Shown in pieces: positions 1-9,114 of a stretch of DNA of 10,260 nucleotides; positions within the stretch are counted from its first letter, which is position 1; every line of letters begins with the position of its first letter. Source of the DNA: Chrysochromulina parva (Eukaryota > Haptophyta > Prymnesiales > Chrysochromulinaceae); NCBI GenBank assembly GCA_002887195.1, contig PJAB01002150.1, positions 1 through 10,260 on the forward strand. The letters are read 5' to 3'. Below the pieces are notes generated by a model that was given only the letters and a program-made list of their open reading frames with translations, was not told where the DNA came from and did no database searches. Both the position numbers and the translations under genes were made by a program.

Positions 1-1647
1 CCGATGCGGTGGATGTAGTCCTCGATGGTGAGCGGGAACGTATAGTTGATGACCACCTCCACGTCAGGGATGTCGAGGCCGCGCGCTGCTACGTCCGTCG
101 CGATGAGCAGCGGGGTGCGCCCCGACTTGAACTGATCGAGCGCGTCGGTGCGCGCGGCCTGCGTCATGTCGCCGTGGATGGCGATGCACGAGTAGCCGGC
201 GCGCTGCACGTCCTGCTCGACGCGCGCTGCCTCCTTCTTGTAGAGGGCGAAGATGAGGCATCGGTTCGTGCGCGAGCCATGGTACCTAATGAGGGAGGTC
301 ATCAAGAGGTCATTAGATGAGGGAGGTCATCAGAGGCCAACAGAGGTCATCAAAGGCTATCAGAGATCATCAAAGGCCATGAAACGCACTCGGACGCAAT
401 CCAGACCCACTCAGACGCAAGCAGACGTACTTTTGGAGGAGCTCCTTGAGGCGCTTGGGCTTATTGGACTCGTCGATGACTTCGACCGTCTGCGTGACGC
501 GCTTGTTGGCAGTGAGGTCAAAGGAGCCGACGTTGATGCGGATGGGCTTCGAGAGGAACTCGTTCGCGAGAGCCTCGACTGAGTCGGGCCAGGTCGCCGT
601 GAACATCATCGTGCGCCGTGTGGGGCTCGTCATGCCGATGATGGCGCGCACGTCCTTCTCGAACCCCATGTCGAGCATCCGGTCAGCCTCGTCGAGCACG
701 AGGTACGTGACGCCGTCGAGCCGGAGCGCGCCGCTCCCCTCCTCGCTGGCGAGGTCCAGGAGCCGGCCGGGCGTCGCCACCACCACCCGCGCACCTTCCT
801 TGAGCGCTTGACGCTGTGGCTTCTTATCCACGCCGCCGTAGACGCACACACTCTTGAGGCCGATAGGCTTGCCTGCCTTCGAGCACACCTCCTCGCTCTG
901 CATGGCGAGCTCGCGCGTGGGCGCGAGCACGAGCACCGCCACGCCGGGTGCGCGTGGGCCGCCGGAATGCTTGAGCACGTGCGTCATCGCCGGAAGGAAG
1001 AAGGCGAGCGTCTTGCCGCTGCCCGTCTCAGCCACACCCACGGTGTCGCGACCCGACATCATCGGCGGCCAGCAGCAGCTCTGAATGGGCGTCGGGCGCG
1101 CGAAGCTGGTCGTCGCCTGCAGCGCCTCCGGCCCGAAGCCTGCCTCCGCGAAGCCCGCCACCGGCCGGAAGGCCTCAGCGCCCTCCCCGGTCACCGAGAT
1201 GACATTCTCCTTGCAGTACGCGTCGGCCGCCGCCTCGTCCATCATGCGCACCTGGCCGAGGACGCCGCTCGGGCCGGCCGGAACCACCGGTGCGGGGGCG
1301 CCGCCGTTGCTCGCCGGCTTGGCCTTCTTGGCCTGCGGCGGCTCCACGGTGGGCTCCTTGCGCTTTGCAGGCGCGGGAGCGGGAGCGGGAGCGGGAGCGG
1401 GCGCGGGCGGCGCGACGGCGTCATCCTCCTCCTCCTTGACGAACCTGACCAGCGAGCCCGTTTGCACGAAGCACGCCTCCTCAGAGAGCTTGCTCGCGAC
1501 GAGCTGCATGGCCTTCTGTTGCTTCTTGCCCGAAGCAACGAGTTGGGCGACGACGATCTGCTCGAGCTCGGCGCGCTCAAGCGTGTTCTTCTTGCCCGAG
1601 GCACGGCCCGCCTTGAGGGCCTGCTTGAGCAGCTTCTTGACGTTCAT
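1..1647 (-). CDS. DBP3: DEAD-box ATP-dependent RNA helicase, DBP3/RH5-like (two exons, C-terminus off window)
   Basis: ATP-dependent RNA helicase. Exon 1 is 1647-431 and exon 2 is 285-1; the join runs through a split Lys codon (AA|G, residue 406), and about 500 residues are visible. Motifs in order: Q-motif region (F182, Q189), motif I AETGSGKT (206-213), Ia PTRELA (243-248), GG (271-272), Ib TPGR (292-295), II DEAD (319-322), III as TAT (350-352), IV LIFALYK (416-422), V ATDVAARGLD (468-477), and the start of VI (HRIG, 498 onward) at the window edge. The wording around the junction (LLQK-YHGSR, then INYTFPLT) matches the fungal Dbp3 / plant RH5 class, known for nucleolar pre-rRNA processing; that role is inferred from family. 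Residues 1-75 form a basic helical extension I do not recognise, followed by an Ala-Pro repeat (~80-94) and a KRK/KKAK nuclear-localisation-like patch. The start is the first Met giving this extension; the frame stays open upstream but only as the antisense shadow of the next gene. Confidence 0.93.
286..430 (-). other. Spliceosomal intron of the helicase gene, built of short repeats
   Basis: 145-nt GT-AG intron (donor AAAA|GTACGTC at 430, acceptor CTCATTAG|GTACC at 286). Its length is not a multiple of three, so removal is needed to join the helicase halves. Nearly the whole intron consists of degenerate 10-11-bp units on the minus strand such as GRCCTYTGAT and TGCGTCTGAG. A 16-bp piece (plus strand atgagggaggtcatca) occurs twice, at 289-304 and 317-332. 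The acceptor-side module CCTCCCTCATTAG closely matches the end of the intron at 6470-6620 in a different gene. Donor and downstream exon both begin GTAC. Confidence 0.88.
1370..1410 (-). repeat. Hexanucleotide repeat coding Ala-Pro in the helicase
   Basis: About six copies of a gcggga/gcgggc hexamer encode the alternating Ala-Pro stretch (residues ~80-94) between the helicase N-terminal extension and its nuclear-localisation-like patch. It is a coding microsatellite and probably a flexible linker. Confidence 0.8.
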
Positions 1648-5400: not shown

Positions 5401-8400
5401 TCACCGGCACGAGGCGGTAGCCTTCTCCTCGTCGTCCGAGTCGGCGCCGCCGGTATTCGAGATGGTGTGCGCCTTGAGCCACGCGGGGAGCGACCCCTTG
5501 TACGCGTTGAGCGCCCTGCCGAGCTCCGACGGAGGGCCGAGGCGCGAGGCGGGGTTGGCGCCGGCGAAGTCGAGCATTGCGAGCGCGAGGCCCTTGCCCA
5601 CCTCGCGCCACGTCGACGGCCCGTAGCGCGCATGCGGGTGGAGCGGCGGCGGCGGCGGGCTGAGGCAGCGTGCGTCCTTCACGGCCGCCTCGTAGCGTGC
5701 AGGCAGCGTGTTGACCCTCTTGCCGTCATTGTAGTTGCACTCGAGTGTGAAGACGTGCGCGAGGCCGGTCGCCGCGTACACCGCCTCGCGTCCAGAGCCC
5801 GCGTGCCCGCTCGCGCCCTCGTAGAACACGCACTGGTCCGTATCGACGAAGCGCGTATTGAGGGCGAGCAGGAACGTGTACAAGGGGCCATCGAGGTGCC
5901 GCTGGTCGGTCGGCGCCATCCGGTTGCCGTACAGGAAGCAGCCGCGCTTGCCCGCGTGCGCGTGGCAGTCGATGTAGCATTCAAGCAGCCGGCGTGCATG
6001 CAAGCTCTTGAGCACGGCCGTCGCCGCAAAGATACTTGGCTGCCGCTCGAGGCTCGCGAAGTTGTAGCAGCGGTTGAGGTTGGCGCCGAACTGGTCGGAG
6101 CGGTAGTTGCAATCAGCATGCAATCAGTATGCACTCAGCATGCACTCAGCATGCACTCAGCATGCAATCAGCACCAGCATGCAATCAGTTGGCGCGCCTG
6201 GTCGGAGCGGTAGTTGCCGCGGTAGCAGCCGTCCGGGTTGAGCATCGGGATGAGCTTGAACACGTACCTGTGGGGAAGGGGAAGGGGCGCCGTGGTGAGC
6301 ACGTGCATGCTGATGCCGGGTTGAGCATCGGGATGAGCTTGAACACGTACCGCTCGCGCAGAGCGGCCGCGCGCGGGTCGGACTCGCGTAGGAGGAACTC
6401 GAGCAACCCGTCGAAGACGAACGAGGAGGGCGTCTCTCCCGGGTGGACCCGCGCGCTGAGGAAGATCACCTGATGAGGGAGGCAATCAGCATGCAATCAG
6501 AGACGATCGAGCAGCGCCGGAGATCATCGGTCCGTCGCGCGCAGAGGACGCTCACCTTCTTGTTGGGGAAGCTGCGCGCTGATGAGGGAGGCAATCAGCA
6601 TGCAATCAGAAGAAGCTCACCTTCTTATTGGGGAAGCTGCGCGCGCGTGGAGGGGGCGGCAGGCCCTCCCACCACGCCTTGACTCCGCGCTCAATCTCGG
6701 GCAGCATCGCCGGCTCGAGTGCCGGCTCGTACCTGTGGGGAAGGGGAAGGGGGCGTCGTGGTGAGCACGTGCATGCTGATGCTCCGTGAGCAATCAGCGC
6801 CGGCTCGAGCGCCGGCTCGTACCTGTGGGGAAGGGGAAGGGGCGCGCCGTGGTGAGCACATGCATGCTGATGCTCCGTGAGCAATCAGCGCCGGCTCGAG
6901 TGCCGGCTCGTACCACTGCGAAGGCTGGAACTGCGGCCGCTCAGCGAAGCCGCGCTTGCTGCTGATGGTGAGCAGGTCGATGCGCCGTCCGTCGACCGAG
7001 CGCGTGAGTAGCTCGCGATGGTAGTATACATTCGAAGGGCTCTCGAGAGGCAGCCGGGCCGCGGCGCTCATCGCCGCGGCCTCGGCAAGCTCGGCGTCCA
7101 TCTCCGCCCTTCCTAAAGCGATCACTTTGGTTTCGAGACGGTTCGTGGCCGCCGACAGGCGCTGTAGCAAGCGATCCAGTTGTGGCGTGACGGCGCGCGA
7201 AGCAGATGGACGCCCCGGAGGGATTGCACTGATTGCACTGATCATCAGGCTGCCCGCGTTGAACGACAGCGGCGGCAGCGACGACGGCGCGGGCACGCTC
7301 AAGGCGGCCGGGGCACGCGACGGGAGTGGAGGCGGAGGTGGGCCAGGCCAGAGGGGCGGTCTCTGGGTCAGACTCTGTACGAGGGCGCCTCCGCGGACCG
7401 CTGGCCTGTGAAGAGTCTCTGTGAAGGGGGCTGCTCCGCGGACCGCTGGCCTGTGAAGAGTCTCTGTGAAGAGGGCTCCTCCTCGGACCGCAGGCCGCCG
7501 TGTACCCTGAGAGAAACTGGCCATGTATGGGCTGCTCGCACCGGCCGTGTATGGGTTCGCTGCCGTGTAAGGGTTGCCTGCCGTGTAAGGGTGGCTCGCA
7601 CCTGACTTGAACATATTCTGCTCAAATCGGAGTAATGGCATCGGCGATGCGGTAGGCGGCGAGGGCGGCGGCGAAGACGGTGGCGGGTGGGGGGGTGAAG
7701 ACGGTGGCGGGTAGGGAGGTGAAGACGGTGGCGGGTAGGGGGGTGAAGGCGGTGGCGGGTGGGGGGGTGAAGGCGGTGGGGACGGCACGCTCTGAGCGGC
7801 CGGGGCACGCGCAGTAGCAGGGGCAGCAGCCTTCCTGGCGGCCCTAGCCGCCCGAGGCTCCGGTGCGAGCGCCTCGAGCGCCGCGTCGCGAGCGGCACTC
7901 AGCAGCCGCTCGCGGCGTAGATGATCCATTTGGTCCATCACTGCCGCCGGCTGGGCTCCCGCACTCAACGCGCTCGTGAGCGTGCCCATGAGTCCTGGGC
8001 CGCTCGATGCCGCGGCGGCCGTCGGAGCGGCCGCTGGCTCTCCACCGGTAGGCGCCATGGTGGGCGCCTCGCCACTCGGCGCACGTGGAGGCACTACCGC
8101 TGACTTGGGCAGCCCGAAGATGGCATCCAGCCACGCCAGGCGTGCCTGGCACTCGGCGTAGCTCTGAGGGTAGCTGAATGCAAAATACAGCGTCTCGTTG
8201 CGCCGCTCGACCTTGTGGGCAAAGGTGATTGCGAACTCGTGGGTATCCTTGCCGGCGCCGGCCTGCTGGCATGGAGTCCGGATCCGCTGCCAGTCTGGCT
8301 GCGACGGCAGGGAGCGGACCACTGGGCGCATATCCTGCTGGTACAAGGCCCTCTGCGGATTCATGTTTCGTATCTCAAAGAACAAGAGCATGCCAGGCGG

Positions 8401-8583
8401 AGCACCACGGACTGCAAAGTAAAACCAGGTGGCACGATTCCTCTCCCTGCTGCCGATGGCATCCGCACGCGTGTACAAGGTGAATTGGTTGCTCCCGCGC
8501 GCTTCCACGCTCTCTATATTGCCCGAATCAAAGTCGGCGTCGAAGATCAAGCCGCCGCACTCGTACGCGCTCACGCGGCTCAT
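5401..8583 (-). CDS. AGBL5: Cytosolic carboxypeptidase CCP5/AGBL5-like (M14 tubulin deglutamylase), five exons
   Basis: Zinc carboxypeptidase of the M14 CCP family; CCP5 enzymes remove branch-point glutamates from polyglutamylated tubulin. Exons: 8583-6914, 6732-6621, 6469-6351, 6267-6198, 6090-5401; all junction phases agree, giving 886 residues. Residues ~1-158 are the CCP N-terminal beta domain ([15 protein letters not shown], later YFAFSYP). Residues ~160-516 are a Pro/Ala-rich insertion. The catalytic domain starts at VYYHREL (~519). Zinc ligands are His603 and Glu606 in HPGE and His700 in [14 protein letters not shown] and GANLNR are substrate-pocket motifs; the catalytic Glu774 sits in TLECNY. 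The N-terminal wording and the TLECNY ending fit CCP5 rather than CCP1/4. The start is the first ATG; the same frame extends to 8649 only from a GTG. Every intron carries duplicated exon sequence (separate entries). An active enzyme is likely because all key residues are kept. Confidence 0.93.
6091..6197 (-). other. Intron 4 of the CCP5-like gene: GC-AG, filled with 11-bp repeats
   Basis: 107-nt intron between [12 protein letters not shown] and FGANLNR. A perfect 20-bp exon repeat (6091-6110 and 6198-6217, encoding NYRSDQ) flanks an 87-bp body (6111-6197). Because of the repeat the boundary could slide, but no GT donor exists in the repeat; the only usable pair is CAG|GCGCGC ... GACCAG|TTC, a GC-AG intron. 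The body carries about five tandem copies of TGCATGCTGAG or TGCATGCTGAT (11 bp). Length is not a multiple of three, so splicing is required. Confidence 0.82.
6268..6350 (-). other. Intron 3 of the CCP5-like gene: 83-nt exact tandem-duplication intron
   Basis: GT-AG intron (GAGCG|GTACGTG ... CCCCACAG|GTACGTG). A perfect 36-bp direct repeat of exon sequence (6233-6268 and 6316-6351, encoding [11 protein letters not shown]) flanks a 47-bp body (6269-6315). The upstream exon copy supplies the donor and the body supplies the polypyrimidine tract and acceptor. The 83-nt length breaks the frame if retained. Confidence 0.9.
6269..6315 (-). mobile_element. Introner-like element body, short form (47 bp)
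   Basis: On the minus strand the body begins CATCAGCATGCACGTGC and ends CCCCTTCCCCTTCCCCACA; the following G comes from the exon repeat and completes the CAG acceptor. It is nearly identical to the last 47-49 bp of the two bodies in intron 1, about 450-600 bp away, but lacks their first 16 bp. It has no coding capacity. The call as a mobile element rests on recurrence at different sites with flanking target-like duplications. Confidence 0.7.
6470..6620 (-). other. Intron 2 of the CCP5-like gene, containing a second copy of the exon end
   Basis: 151-nt GT-AG intron (AAGAAG|GTGAGC ... CTCATCAG|GTGATC). It holds a 30-bp copy of the exon 2 end plus donor (6550-6579, one mismatch to the real one at 6615-6644), which would encode RSFPNKK again. 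A 32-bp acceptor module ending CTCCCTCATCAG occurs perfectly twice (6470-6501 and 6579-6610). An inner 42-nt intron (6579-6620) plus a 23-nt pseudo-exon is possible but would shift the frame, so the outer splice is the likely one. Confidence 0.88.
6580..6614 (-). mobile_element. Introner-like element body, CTCATCAG subfamily (35 bp)
   Basis: Body between the 30-bp exon-end repeats in intron 2: it contains TGATTGCATGC followed by TGATTGCCTCCC and TCATCA. It ends in CA, and the G of CAG comes from the repeat, the same rule as in the CCCCACA subfamily. The 11-bp unit links it to the body of intron 4, and its end links it to the helicase intron. Confidence 0.6.
6734..6797 (-). mobile_element. Introner-like element body, long form copy 1 (64 bp)
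   Basis: The minus strand starts CTGATTGCTCACGGAG, then follows the shared core CATCAGCATGCACGTGCTC to the CCCCACA end. The first part can fold: TGATTGCTC and GAGCATCA are near-inverse around ACG. It contains CTGAT, a possible branch point. It differs from the neighbouring 65-bp copy at only a few positions. Confidence 0.72.
6824..6888 (-). mobile_element. Introner-like element body, long form copy 2 (65 bp)
   Basis: Same architecture as the 64-bp copy, with GCATGCATGTGC in place of GCATGCACGTGC and one extra base in the CG-rich segment before the pyrimidine tract. All three bodies of this subfamily lie in the sense orientation, which their acceptor role needs. Confidence 0.72.
7393..7497 (-). 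repeat. 45-bp minisatellite in the CCP5 linker
   Basis: Two full and one partial 45-bp units (starting 7393, 7438, 7483) encode a 15-residue repeat [15 protein letters not shown] and variants. The frame is kept, and the units differ by a few substitutions. It lies in the non-catalytic insertion. Confidence 0.85.
7544..7597 (-). repeat. 18-bp minisatellite in the CCP5 linker
   Basis: Three 18-bp units (7544-7561, 7562-7579, 7580-7597) based on gccgtgtaagggttgcct encode NPYTA(A/G) repeats within the insertion. Confidence 0.82.
7679..7774 (-). repeat. 24-bp minisatellite coding a Pro-Ser-rich tract
   Basis: Four 24-bp units (7679, 7703, 7727, 7751) of ggtggcggg-type sequence encode PPPSSPPY/H octads, resembling the extensin-like Pro-rich tracts of algal proteins. 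They are flanked by more degenerate PPPSPP sequence. Confidence 0.85.
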
Positions 8584-8823
8584 CCGCACTAGTCGGGCAG
8601 GGCGCGGCCGTTTGAACAAACTTTTGAACACCGAAAAAATCTCATTCACGGTCGTTCACGTTCATTCACACACCATGATTCCAGCACACCCTCCGAGAAC
8701 AGGCTTGCGCCACCGGAGAGTGGACACATTGGTCGACTGCGTTGAGCAAGGTCAACTCCAGGAGTAATGACAACCACAGTGTCACCAAACTCCACCCTCA
8801 TTACCACTCGTCGGTTTGTGGTG

Positions 8824-9065
8824 CGATATTGACGGGGGGGTCGCGATATCGTGGGATTCCGCGATTTCGTAGTCCGGTTAGCAATATCGTAGTACGCGCA
8901 CGATATCTTGGGAGGGCGCCGATATCGTGTCCCCGTGCCGATATGCACATCGTGTGAGAGGTTGCGATATCGTGGGTAATTTGCGAATTGCGATGCCGTG
9001 GGCGGTGGGCCGCGCGGTAATTTCGTACATAGGCCCACGATATCGTGAGATTTCGCGATATCGTG
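8824..9065. repeat. Array of about twelve GATATC-centred motifs (GCGATATCGTG)
   Basis: Six exact GATATC palindromes start at 8845, 8902, 8921, 8966, 9039 and 9057; diverged versions start at 8825, 8863, 8883, 8940, 8992 and 9019. Spacing between successive starts is 20, 18, 20, 19, 19, 19, 26, 26, 27, 20, 18. The fuller consensus is GCGATATCGTGGG; CACGATATCGTG at 9036-9047 is a perfect 12-bp palindrome. Sequence between motifs is not conserved, unlike an ordinary recent minisatellite. Confidence 0.8.
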
Positions 9066-9114
9066 CCCCCGCCCAGGACAACGCACATTCCCGTAAAGTG
9101 CTATGCCTGCTCCG

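What the first reader, a model, noticed from the sequence alone, without database searches (positions are those of the whole stretch)
6268..6913. Introner-like elements caught with long exon target duplications intact
Near-identical short bodies (47, 64 and 65 bp; common end CCCCTTCCCCTTCCCCACA) sit in two different introns of one gene. Each is bracketed by perfect or near-perfect direct repeats of the local exon (36 bp at one site, 26 bp at the other). The sequence shows that the duplicated exon supplies the GT donor and the body supplies the pyrimidine tract and acceptor. Intron-generating transposable elements (introners) with target duplications are known in Micromonas and Aureococcus, but those duplications are short; 26-36 bp is unusual. 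I infer a recently active family whose staggered break or copying step is long.
Basis: partly seen in the sequence, partly recalled or inferred. Interest (0 to 1): 0.93.

Follow-up and report, generated by a model that had tools for sequence, protein, structure and literature searches.

The report
Copied introns flanked by long duplications
In this probably algal genome, pieces of existing introns appear to be copied into new genes, and each insertion duplicates roughly 15-45 letters of the host gene, which then supply the missing splice signal, so the birth of introns can be studied almost as it happens.

Summary
The body core matches 1,626 places (reversed control 54). Of 83 held non-tandem copies with a 3' splice site, 58 have an exon direct repeat starting right after the AG, 14-46 bp (median 25.5); 0 of 598 mismatched pairs do. 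A second body (family B, 2,675 matches) shows similar repeats in 10 of 34. The repeats came with the insertions: close alleles (97-98% protein identity) have the segment once at window site 6268-6350 and at a second locus. The body has no fixed 5' end and no terminal inverted repeats. In two lineages clearly, and a third less so, an intron carries exon sequence of a parent intron's own duplication into another gene. So the mobile thing seems to be the 3' part of an intron, not a bounded transposon. Best explanation: templated copying into a staggered break with a 15-45-nt overhang; an RNA-primed route remains possible. Splicing is inferred from frames only. Introners are known; repeats this long were not met in what I saw of six paper searches.

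The parts
5401..8583 (-). Host gene: cytosolic carboxypeptidase 5-like (AGBL5/CCP5); exons 8583-6914, 6732-6621, 6469-6351, 6267-6198, 6090-5401
   Evidence: Spliced frame 886 aa; PDB 8v3m E 3.4e-107; Pfam PF00246 and PF18027; queries left out the proline-rich linker
6733..6913 (-). Intron 1: two tandem family A introns (64- and 65-bp bodies), GTACG...CCCCACAG
   Evidence: a close allele, P0011, reads through a single copy
6708..6733 (-). Exon repeat, exonic (3') copy, 26 bp
6734..6797 (-). Family A body, 64 bp
6798..6823 (-). Exon repeat, middle copy (1 mismatch)
6824..6888 (-). Family A body, 65 bp
6889..6914 (-). Exon repeat, 5' copy supplying the GT donor
6470..6620 (-). Intron 2: composite family B intron (two CTGATTGCATGCTGATTGCCTCCCTCATCAG bodies) ending CATCAG|GTGATC; contains an imperfect duplicate of flanking exon (6542-6579 against 6607-6644)
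   Evidence: pattern CTGATTGCCTCCCTCATCAG 2,675 matches genome-wide vs 0 control
6268..6350 (-). Intron 3: single family A intron, 83 bp
   Evidence: absent in P0001 and P0002
6233..6268 (-). 36-bp repeat, exonic copy
6269..6315 (-). Family A body, 47 bp (5'-shorter relative of the 65-bp bodies)
6316..6351 (-). 36-bp repeat, intronic copy supplying the GTACGT donor
6091..6197 (-). Intron 4: GC-AG intron with an 11-bp TGATTGCATGC array; here the exon repeat (20 bp, 6091-6110 and 6198-6217) supplies the AG
   Evidence: absent in P0001/P0002

Best explanation
New introns arise when the 3' part of an existing intron (a variable upstream stretch, the branch-point-like TGCTCACC, a pyrimidine tract, CAG) is copied into a break in an exon. 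The two strands of the target are cut or nicked about 15-45 bp apart; both ends are filled in, so the exon segment flanks the insert twice; the insert's AG lands next to a GT that begins the duplicated segment. Splicing from the first GT to the insert's AG restores the message exactly. SHOWN by sequence: intron pieces shared between unrelated genes together with parental exon sequence, repeats absent from empty alleles, no fixed 5' end, donor supplied by the repeat, coding frames restored on removal. INFERRED: actual splicing, the overhang break, and that the template is DNA (or nascent RNA close by) rather than an excised intron RNA.
For: Repeats: 58 of 83 non-tandem copies with an acceptor, 14-46 bp, vs 0 of 598 null; 125 of 166 vs 14 of 991. 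In 59 copies selected for AG at the repeat start: donor GT 47, GC 3; intron 57-100 nt; length mod 3 = 22/18/19, so most would shift the frame if not spliced. Frames: of 48 of these with GT/GC donor and enough flank, the joined sense strand is stop-free over a median 0.993 of +/-300 bp, vs 0.763 retained, 0.833 antisense, 0.739 frame-shifted joins. Parent to daughter: the C2132 intron's copy of its own exon reappears inside the C240 intron; among the matches (40 of 71 candidates scored) no third locus extends into that 5' part beyond query position 26; the C24 exon repeat reappears in the C1211 and C492 introns; C451 exon sequence lies in the C1228 intron. Empty alleles: P0121 lacks the C240 intron while P0122 and P0123 carry it; P0001/P0002 lack window introns 3 and 4. 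Similar repeat lengths around an unrelated body. Local spread: 15 same-contig pairs >=250 bp apart are more alike than 4,435 other pairs (p 2.9e-4; the 15 pairs are not independent), one of them on opposite strands 5.2 kb apart. By my reading 8 of 76 non-tandem repeat-flanked copies end without AG. Precedent: paired nicks with 46-nt overhangs give tandem duplications; those made by polymerase theta occasionally carry templated inserts in cis (PMC5730883 passages).
Against: 51 of 76 non-tandem repeat-flanked copies have AG at the repeat start by rule, and 66 by my reading; an RNA intermediate would explain that without selection. 14 of the 15 local pairs are on the same strand, which a shared transcript would also explain. 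Break repair alone does not explain why two bodies recur so often rather than random filler. Read by eye, the C240 5' junction shows about no microhomology. 20 of 83 copies with an acceptor show no anchored repeat (score <=6). Retained introns are stop-free over >=0.9 of the stretch in 20 of 48 cases, antisense in 17 of 48 and shifted joins in 36 of 96, against 31 of 48 for true joins, so the frame test is supportive, not decisive.
Confidence: 0.52

Rival explanations
1. RNA route: an excised intron attaches by its 3' end (AG) to one DNA strand (half of a reverse splicing reaction), a nick some 15-45 nt away on the other strand primes reverse transcription, and the copy is 5'-truncated. This would be a LINE-like or 'spliceosomal retrohoming' process.
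For: AG at the repeat start in 51 (by rule) to 66 (by my reading) of 76 non-tandem repeat-flanked copies; variable 5' ends; daughters are 5'-shortened copies of parent introns; 14 of 15 local pairs on the same strand; five RVT_1 matches, four in stop-free frames of 1,345-2,709 aa; the model is named in PMC3443670 (passages).
Against: Some repeat-flanked copies end without AG: 8 of 76 (L040, L079, L081, three in L088, L095, L097; four of these lie in the mutually similar, repetitive L088/L095), and in composite introns the first copy in L092, the second in L014 and one in L074. Nearly identical bodies lie on opposite strands 5.2 kb apart (one pair). Selection for exact splicing could by itself produce the AG-precise set.
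Confidence: 0.33
2. A non-autonomous DNA transposon (MITE-type introner) whose transposase makes an unusually long target duplication.
For: Some known introners look like this, for example in Symbiodinium and Aureococcus (PMC9860276; PMC7789003; passages). High copy number of a conserved core.
Against: No terminal inverted repeats (0 of 59 bodies with a run >=5, 1.0 expected). 5' end scattered over 0-57 bp from the core. Parental exon sequence is carried along. Repeat length varies from 14 to 46 bp, unlike the near-constant length of transposase products (recalled).
Confidence: 0.07
3. Ordinary tandem duplication, precise intron loss in the relatives, or assembly artefact.
For: 64 of 166 copies lie next to another core and some are pure tandem arrays (L079, L116, L098); intron 1 of the window is a tandem duplicate.
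Against: Bodies are shared between unrelated genes, and proteins from other sources show the same insertion (P0011, P0122, P0123) and its absence (P0121, P0001, P0002). Loss would have to remove one repeat copy plus the body exactly, in several genes.
Confidence: 0.04

Closest known systems
Introners / introner elements (Micromonas, Aureococcus, Symbiodinium, Chrysochromulina MAG; Gozashti et al. 2022, PMC9860276, passages)
   Same: Many similar short introns in many genes; a splice site co-opted from the target duplication; recent activity; a Chrysochromulina MAG with introners lacking TIRs is described there.
   Different: Duplications mentioned in the passages are 3-9 bp (4 bp in the Chrysochromulina example, which carries its 5' site; here the 5' site usually comes from the duplication); here 14-46 bp. 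Here the 5' boundary is not fixed and parental exon sequence is carried to new genes.
Daphnia neointrons formed by staggered double-strand-break repair (PMC4202315, passages)
   Same: Direct repeat of the adjacent exon at the other end of the new intron; presence/absence polymorphism.
   Different: Repeats of that kind there are 4-12 bp and the source of most inserts is unknown; here inserts are copies of other introns.
Tandem duplications, sometimes with templated inserts, at paired nicks or staggered breaks (PMC5730883, passages; PMC8355091, abstract)
   Same: Duplication of tens of base pairs at breaks with long overhangs.
   Different: Shown in mammalian cells with Cas9, not linked to introns; the templated inserts there are in cis.
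Spliceosomal retrohoming / intron transposition (reviewed in PMC3443670, passages)
   Same: An existing intron is the template for a new one.
   Different: Full reverse splicing would give a complete intron without exon duplication (my inference); here introns are 5'-shortened and flanked by long repeats.

Membership tests
Introner (broad sense: repeated sequence that makes introns at many sites) | Many similar copies located as introns in unrelated genes | tested here: met
   1,626 core matches vs 54 control; joined frames open; of 10 joined proteins that I chose from the 24 printed of 31 (one shortened by four residues), 8 have a Pfam match and in 5 of those the match spans the junction (L093, second L019, L046, L049, L050)
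Introner (broad sense: repeated sequence that makes introns at many sites) | Copies are spliced from mRNA | not testable with these tools
   No RNA reads; only frame evidence
Introner (broad sense: repeated sequence that makes introns at many sites) | Recent gain: empty sites in close relatives | tested here: met
   P0001/P0002 and P0121 empty; P0122/P0123 filled; two loci only. A third locus (C1211) gave only relatives at 79-83% identity, empty, too distant to count
DNA-transposon (MITE) introner | Terminal inverted repeats | tested here: not met
   0 of 59 bodies with a terminal run >=5, 1.0 expected
DNA-transposon (MITE) introner | Short target duplication (3-9 bp) | tested here: not met
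   14-46 bp, median 25.5, in 58 of 83
DNA-transposon (MITE) introner | Fixed element ends | tested here: not met
   5' end 0-57 bp from core; parental exon carried over
Non-LTR-retrotransposon-like (TPRT) insertion | 5' truncation with common 3' end and variable duplications | tested here: inconclusive
   5' ends vary and 51 to 66 of 76 have AG at the junction, but 8 do not, and AG may be selected
Non-LTR-retrotransposon-like (TPRT) insertion | RNA intermediate | not tested
   No search for spliced carry-over was made; RT-like genes are present
Staggered-break repair intron | Exon direct repeat at both ends created at insertion | tested here: met
   Segment single in empty alleles, double in filled ones, read from proteins
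Staggered-break repair intron | Origin in a double-strand break or paired nicks | not testable with these tools
   Inferred from the repeat alone

The most novel reading that the evidence does not exclude
Introns in this lineage multiply without any bounded mobile element: the 3' half of whichever intron is used as template is copied into exon breaks with a characteristic overhang of about 15-45 nt, each generation replacing the intron's 5' half with a fresh duplicate of the new host exon. The conserved 'element' is then just the splicing-essential remnant left after repeated rounds, and one trans-acting process serves unrelated intron families. That would be a distinct route of intron birth, between transposition and break repair.
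Probability: 0.42. Interest if true: 0.92.

Novelty: new variant of a known kind. Interest (0 to 1): 0.82.

Why it matters
How new spliceosomal introns arise is a long-standing open question. Here parent and daughter introns, the duplicated target and empty alleles can be read in one lineage, so the template, the break geometry and the order of events become directly testable. If the boundary-less copying is right, intron proliferation need not require a transposon family.

Tried and rejected
Short repeats as the norm: rejected; anchored repeats scoring 7-10 are 5 of 83 against 23 of 598 by chance. Repeat length as mere compensation for short bodies: not settled; repeat length correlates with body length (-0.53), but the body's 5' limit is defined by the repeat's end, the core-to-AG part alone shows only -0.10, and family B with other bodies has similar repeats (10 of 34 at score >=34 vs 11 of 1,382 null; two of the ten, L020 and L042, look like repeats inside element arrays). 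TIR-bearing transposon: rejected. The exact 19-bp end as family marker: too narrow (4 hits). Organism identity by 18S: unanswered. Homologue search for the C1211 gene: relatives at 79-83% identity are empty at that site (P0144, P0148), too distant to count as allelic. On rechecking I found that the 59 copies were chosen for AG at the repeat start, so their AG share proves nothing; one search recounts without that choice. I also found that 14 of 15 local pairs are on the same strand. For both reasons I moved the repair model from 0.58 to 0.52 and the RNA route from 0.28 to 0.33. The acceptor pattern asked for AG followed by GT or GC (or CCCCACAG), so the GT share of its exonic repeat copies is partly built in.

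Full report
What is there. The window is a whole contig of a 45-Mb eukaryotic genome in 2,199 contigs, 66% G+C. The finding lies in a minus-strand gene for a cytosolic carboxypeptidase 5 homologue. Named algal relatives among the 120 listed hits are Prymnesium parvum and Chrysochromulina tobinii, so a haptophyte is likely; this is inference. Splicing out four introns gives a single 886-aa frame that aligns to the solved enzyme without a gap at the junctions of introns 2, 3 and 4.

A large family. The core GCATGCACGTGCTCACC matches 1,626 places at up to 2 mismatches, against 54 for the reversed pattern. I hold all 95 exact places plus relatives. In gene sense the body reads: variable 5' stretch, core (TGCTCACC resembles a branch point; recalled), ACGGCGC, a variable pyrimidine tract and usually CCCCACAG. 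A second, different body ending CTGATTGCCTCCCTCATCAG matches 2,675 places against 0.

The long repeats are real. With element cores masked, 125 of 166 copies have a flanking repeat scoring >=32 against 14 of 991 mismatched pairs. Of the 166, 64 lie next to another core; of the other 102, 76 score >=32 and 26 do not. Anchored exactly at the 3' AG, 58 of 83 non-tandem copies have a repeat scoring >=11 against 0 of 598; lengths 14-46, median 25.5; the two copies are about 96% identical at the median; the intronic copy begins with GT in 52 and GC in 3 of 58 (its acceptor pattern favoured AG followed by GT or GC). Repeats shorter than 14 are essentially missing, although scores of 9-13 would be visible (5 observed). 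Published ranges seen: introners 3-9 bp (PMC9860276, passages), Amoebophrya 3-5 nt (PMC7789003, passages), Daphnia 4-12 bp (PMC4202315, passages). PMC11782384 (passages) gives repeats of 4-30 bp, mean 11.4, near the borders of 213 introns of all classes; in the rows that I saw, those of 25-30 bp are plastid group II/III cases at 72-84% similarity. In the listings and passages that I saw from six searches of open-access papers there was no introner with repeats of this length; subscription papers were not available to me.

They behave as introns. In 59 copies selected for AG at the repeat start, the donor is GT in 47 and GC in 3, intron length is 57-100 (median 77), and lengths mod 3 are 22/18/19. 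Of the 48 with GT/GC donor and enough flank, the joined sense frame is stop-free over a median 0.993 of the stretch, versus 0.763 with the intron kept, 0.833 antisense, and 0.739 for joins shifted by 1-2 bases; at >=0.9 the counts are 31, 20 and 17 of 48 and 36 of 96. Of 10 joined proteins that I picked from the 24 printed of 31, 8 have Pfam matches, and in 5 the match spans the junction. RNA evidence is lacking.

The repeats arise with the insertion. The protein collection contains very close alleles. P0001 and P0002 (98% and 97% identity over 55% of the query) begin inside the 3' part of window intron 2; that codon is TTG in this window, which suggests a bacterial-style call on unspliced sequence. 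They run without interruption across sites 3 and 4, so the 36-bp and 20-bp segments occur once. That they are transcripts with intron 2 retained is not excluded. P0011 reads through intron 1 with a single copy of the intron, where the window has two. For the C240 gene, P0121 (97%, 33 member sequences) is empty, while P0122 and P0123 (95%, 94%) carry the intron; P0121's first residues (MQVLTTAPVPHR) resemble the read-through of a family A body (compare C240), so it looks like unspliced DNA. P0132 has a family B-like insertion where this genome has none, and its two matches to C240 overlap by 40 bases, as a target duplication would.

No bounded element. Body 5' ends lie 0-57 bp upstream of the core. 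There are no terminal inverted repeats (0 of 59 with a run >=5, 1.0 expected). Three lineages show what is copied. (1) C2132: the intron begins with a diverged copy of its own exon (GTACGTTTGGGCGA..CCACCTCCACGATCC); the C240 intron, in another gene with its own repeat of about 20-22 bp, contains AACCACCTCCACGATC followed by the same core and a nearly identical tract. In one search (40 of 71 candidates scored) only C2132 and C240 match beyond query position 26 in the 5' direction. In P0122 and P0123 this stretch matches the parent at 95% and 90% over 21 residues in translation. (2) C24: its 30-bp exon repeat ends CATGGACCACCCGGC, then CCCCATGCCTT and the core; introns at C1211 and C492, identical to each other over 70 bp, carry TGGACCGCCCGGCCCCCATGCCTT. 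(3) C451, an ATPase-like gene (by eye), and C1228, whose intron carries TTCTCGCTGCCCTCGTGCGC of the C451 exon; here the presumed daughter holds more of the parental exon than the parent's present repeat, so the parent lost some or the order differs. This third case is the weakest.

Mechanism. Each round seems to copy the 3' part of an intron and add a fresh exon duplicate in front. Two different bodies with similar repeat lengths (family B: 10 of 34 at score >=34 against 11 of 1,382; lengths 15-39; two of the ten look like array repeats) point to a shared trans-acting process. For DNA-templated repair: near-identical bodies cluster on contigs (15 pairs >=250 bp apart, not all independent, median similarity 0.56 vs 0.30 for 4,435 other pairs, p 2.9e-4), one of them an opposite-strand pair 5.2 kb apart; by my reading 8 of 76 non-tandem repeat-flanked copies have no AG at the junction, four of them in the similar, repetitive loci L088 and L095; paired nicks with 46-nt overhangs yield tandem duplications, and those made by polymerase theta occasionally carry inserts templated in cis (PMC5730883, passages; PMC8355091, abstract). 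For an RNA template: AG at the junction in 51 (by rule) to 66 (by my reading) of 76, two unclear; 14 of the 15 local pairs on the same strand; 5' shortening; and RT-like genes in open frames. Selection for exact splicing can explain the AG precision. I lean to the repair model at 0.52 and give the RNA route 0.33.

Verdict. An active, intron-making process with unusually long target duplications and without fixed element ends: a new variant of the introner phenomenon, possibly a distinct route of intron birth.

Noticed in passing
window 288-430 (minus strand): Intron-like array of TGATGACCTC/TGATTGCC-type units inside the helicase-like gene at the contig start (identified by eye); looks like another family B intron.
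   Followed up: no
window 7373-7496 and 7673-7779: 45-bp and 24-bp tandem coding repeats in the proline-rich linker of the carboxypeptidase; the close allele P0011 has fewer copies of both (by eye).
   Followed up: partly
window 8820-9080: Intergenic stretch with many GATATCGTG-like palindromic motifs (by eye); purpose unknown.
   Followed up: no
L079 (C760), L116 (C2114), L098 (C1387): Family A core in tandem arrays with units of 48, 33 and 51 bp, apparently not single introns.
   Followed up: partly
G000:C1434:8294, C324:5581, C103:30237, C34:41247: Four RVT_1 matches in stop-free frames of 1,345-2,709 aa; possible active reverse transcriptases.
   Followed up: no
P0132: A close allele of the C240 gene carries a family B-like insertion at a site that is empty in this genome.
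   Followed up: partly
window 6091-6197: GC-AG intron whose acceptor comes from the exon repeat, the reverse arrangement of introns 1 and 3, with an 11-bp TGATTGCATGC array.
   Followed up: partly
L069, L100, L031, L099: Copies in which the element carries its own GTACG donor and CACCACAG, and the exon repeat lies upstream of the donor (by eye): a second insertion geometry in the same family.
   Followed up: partly
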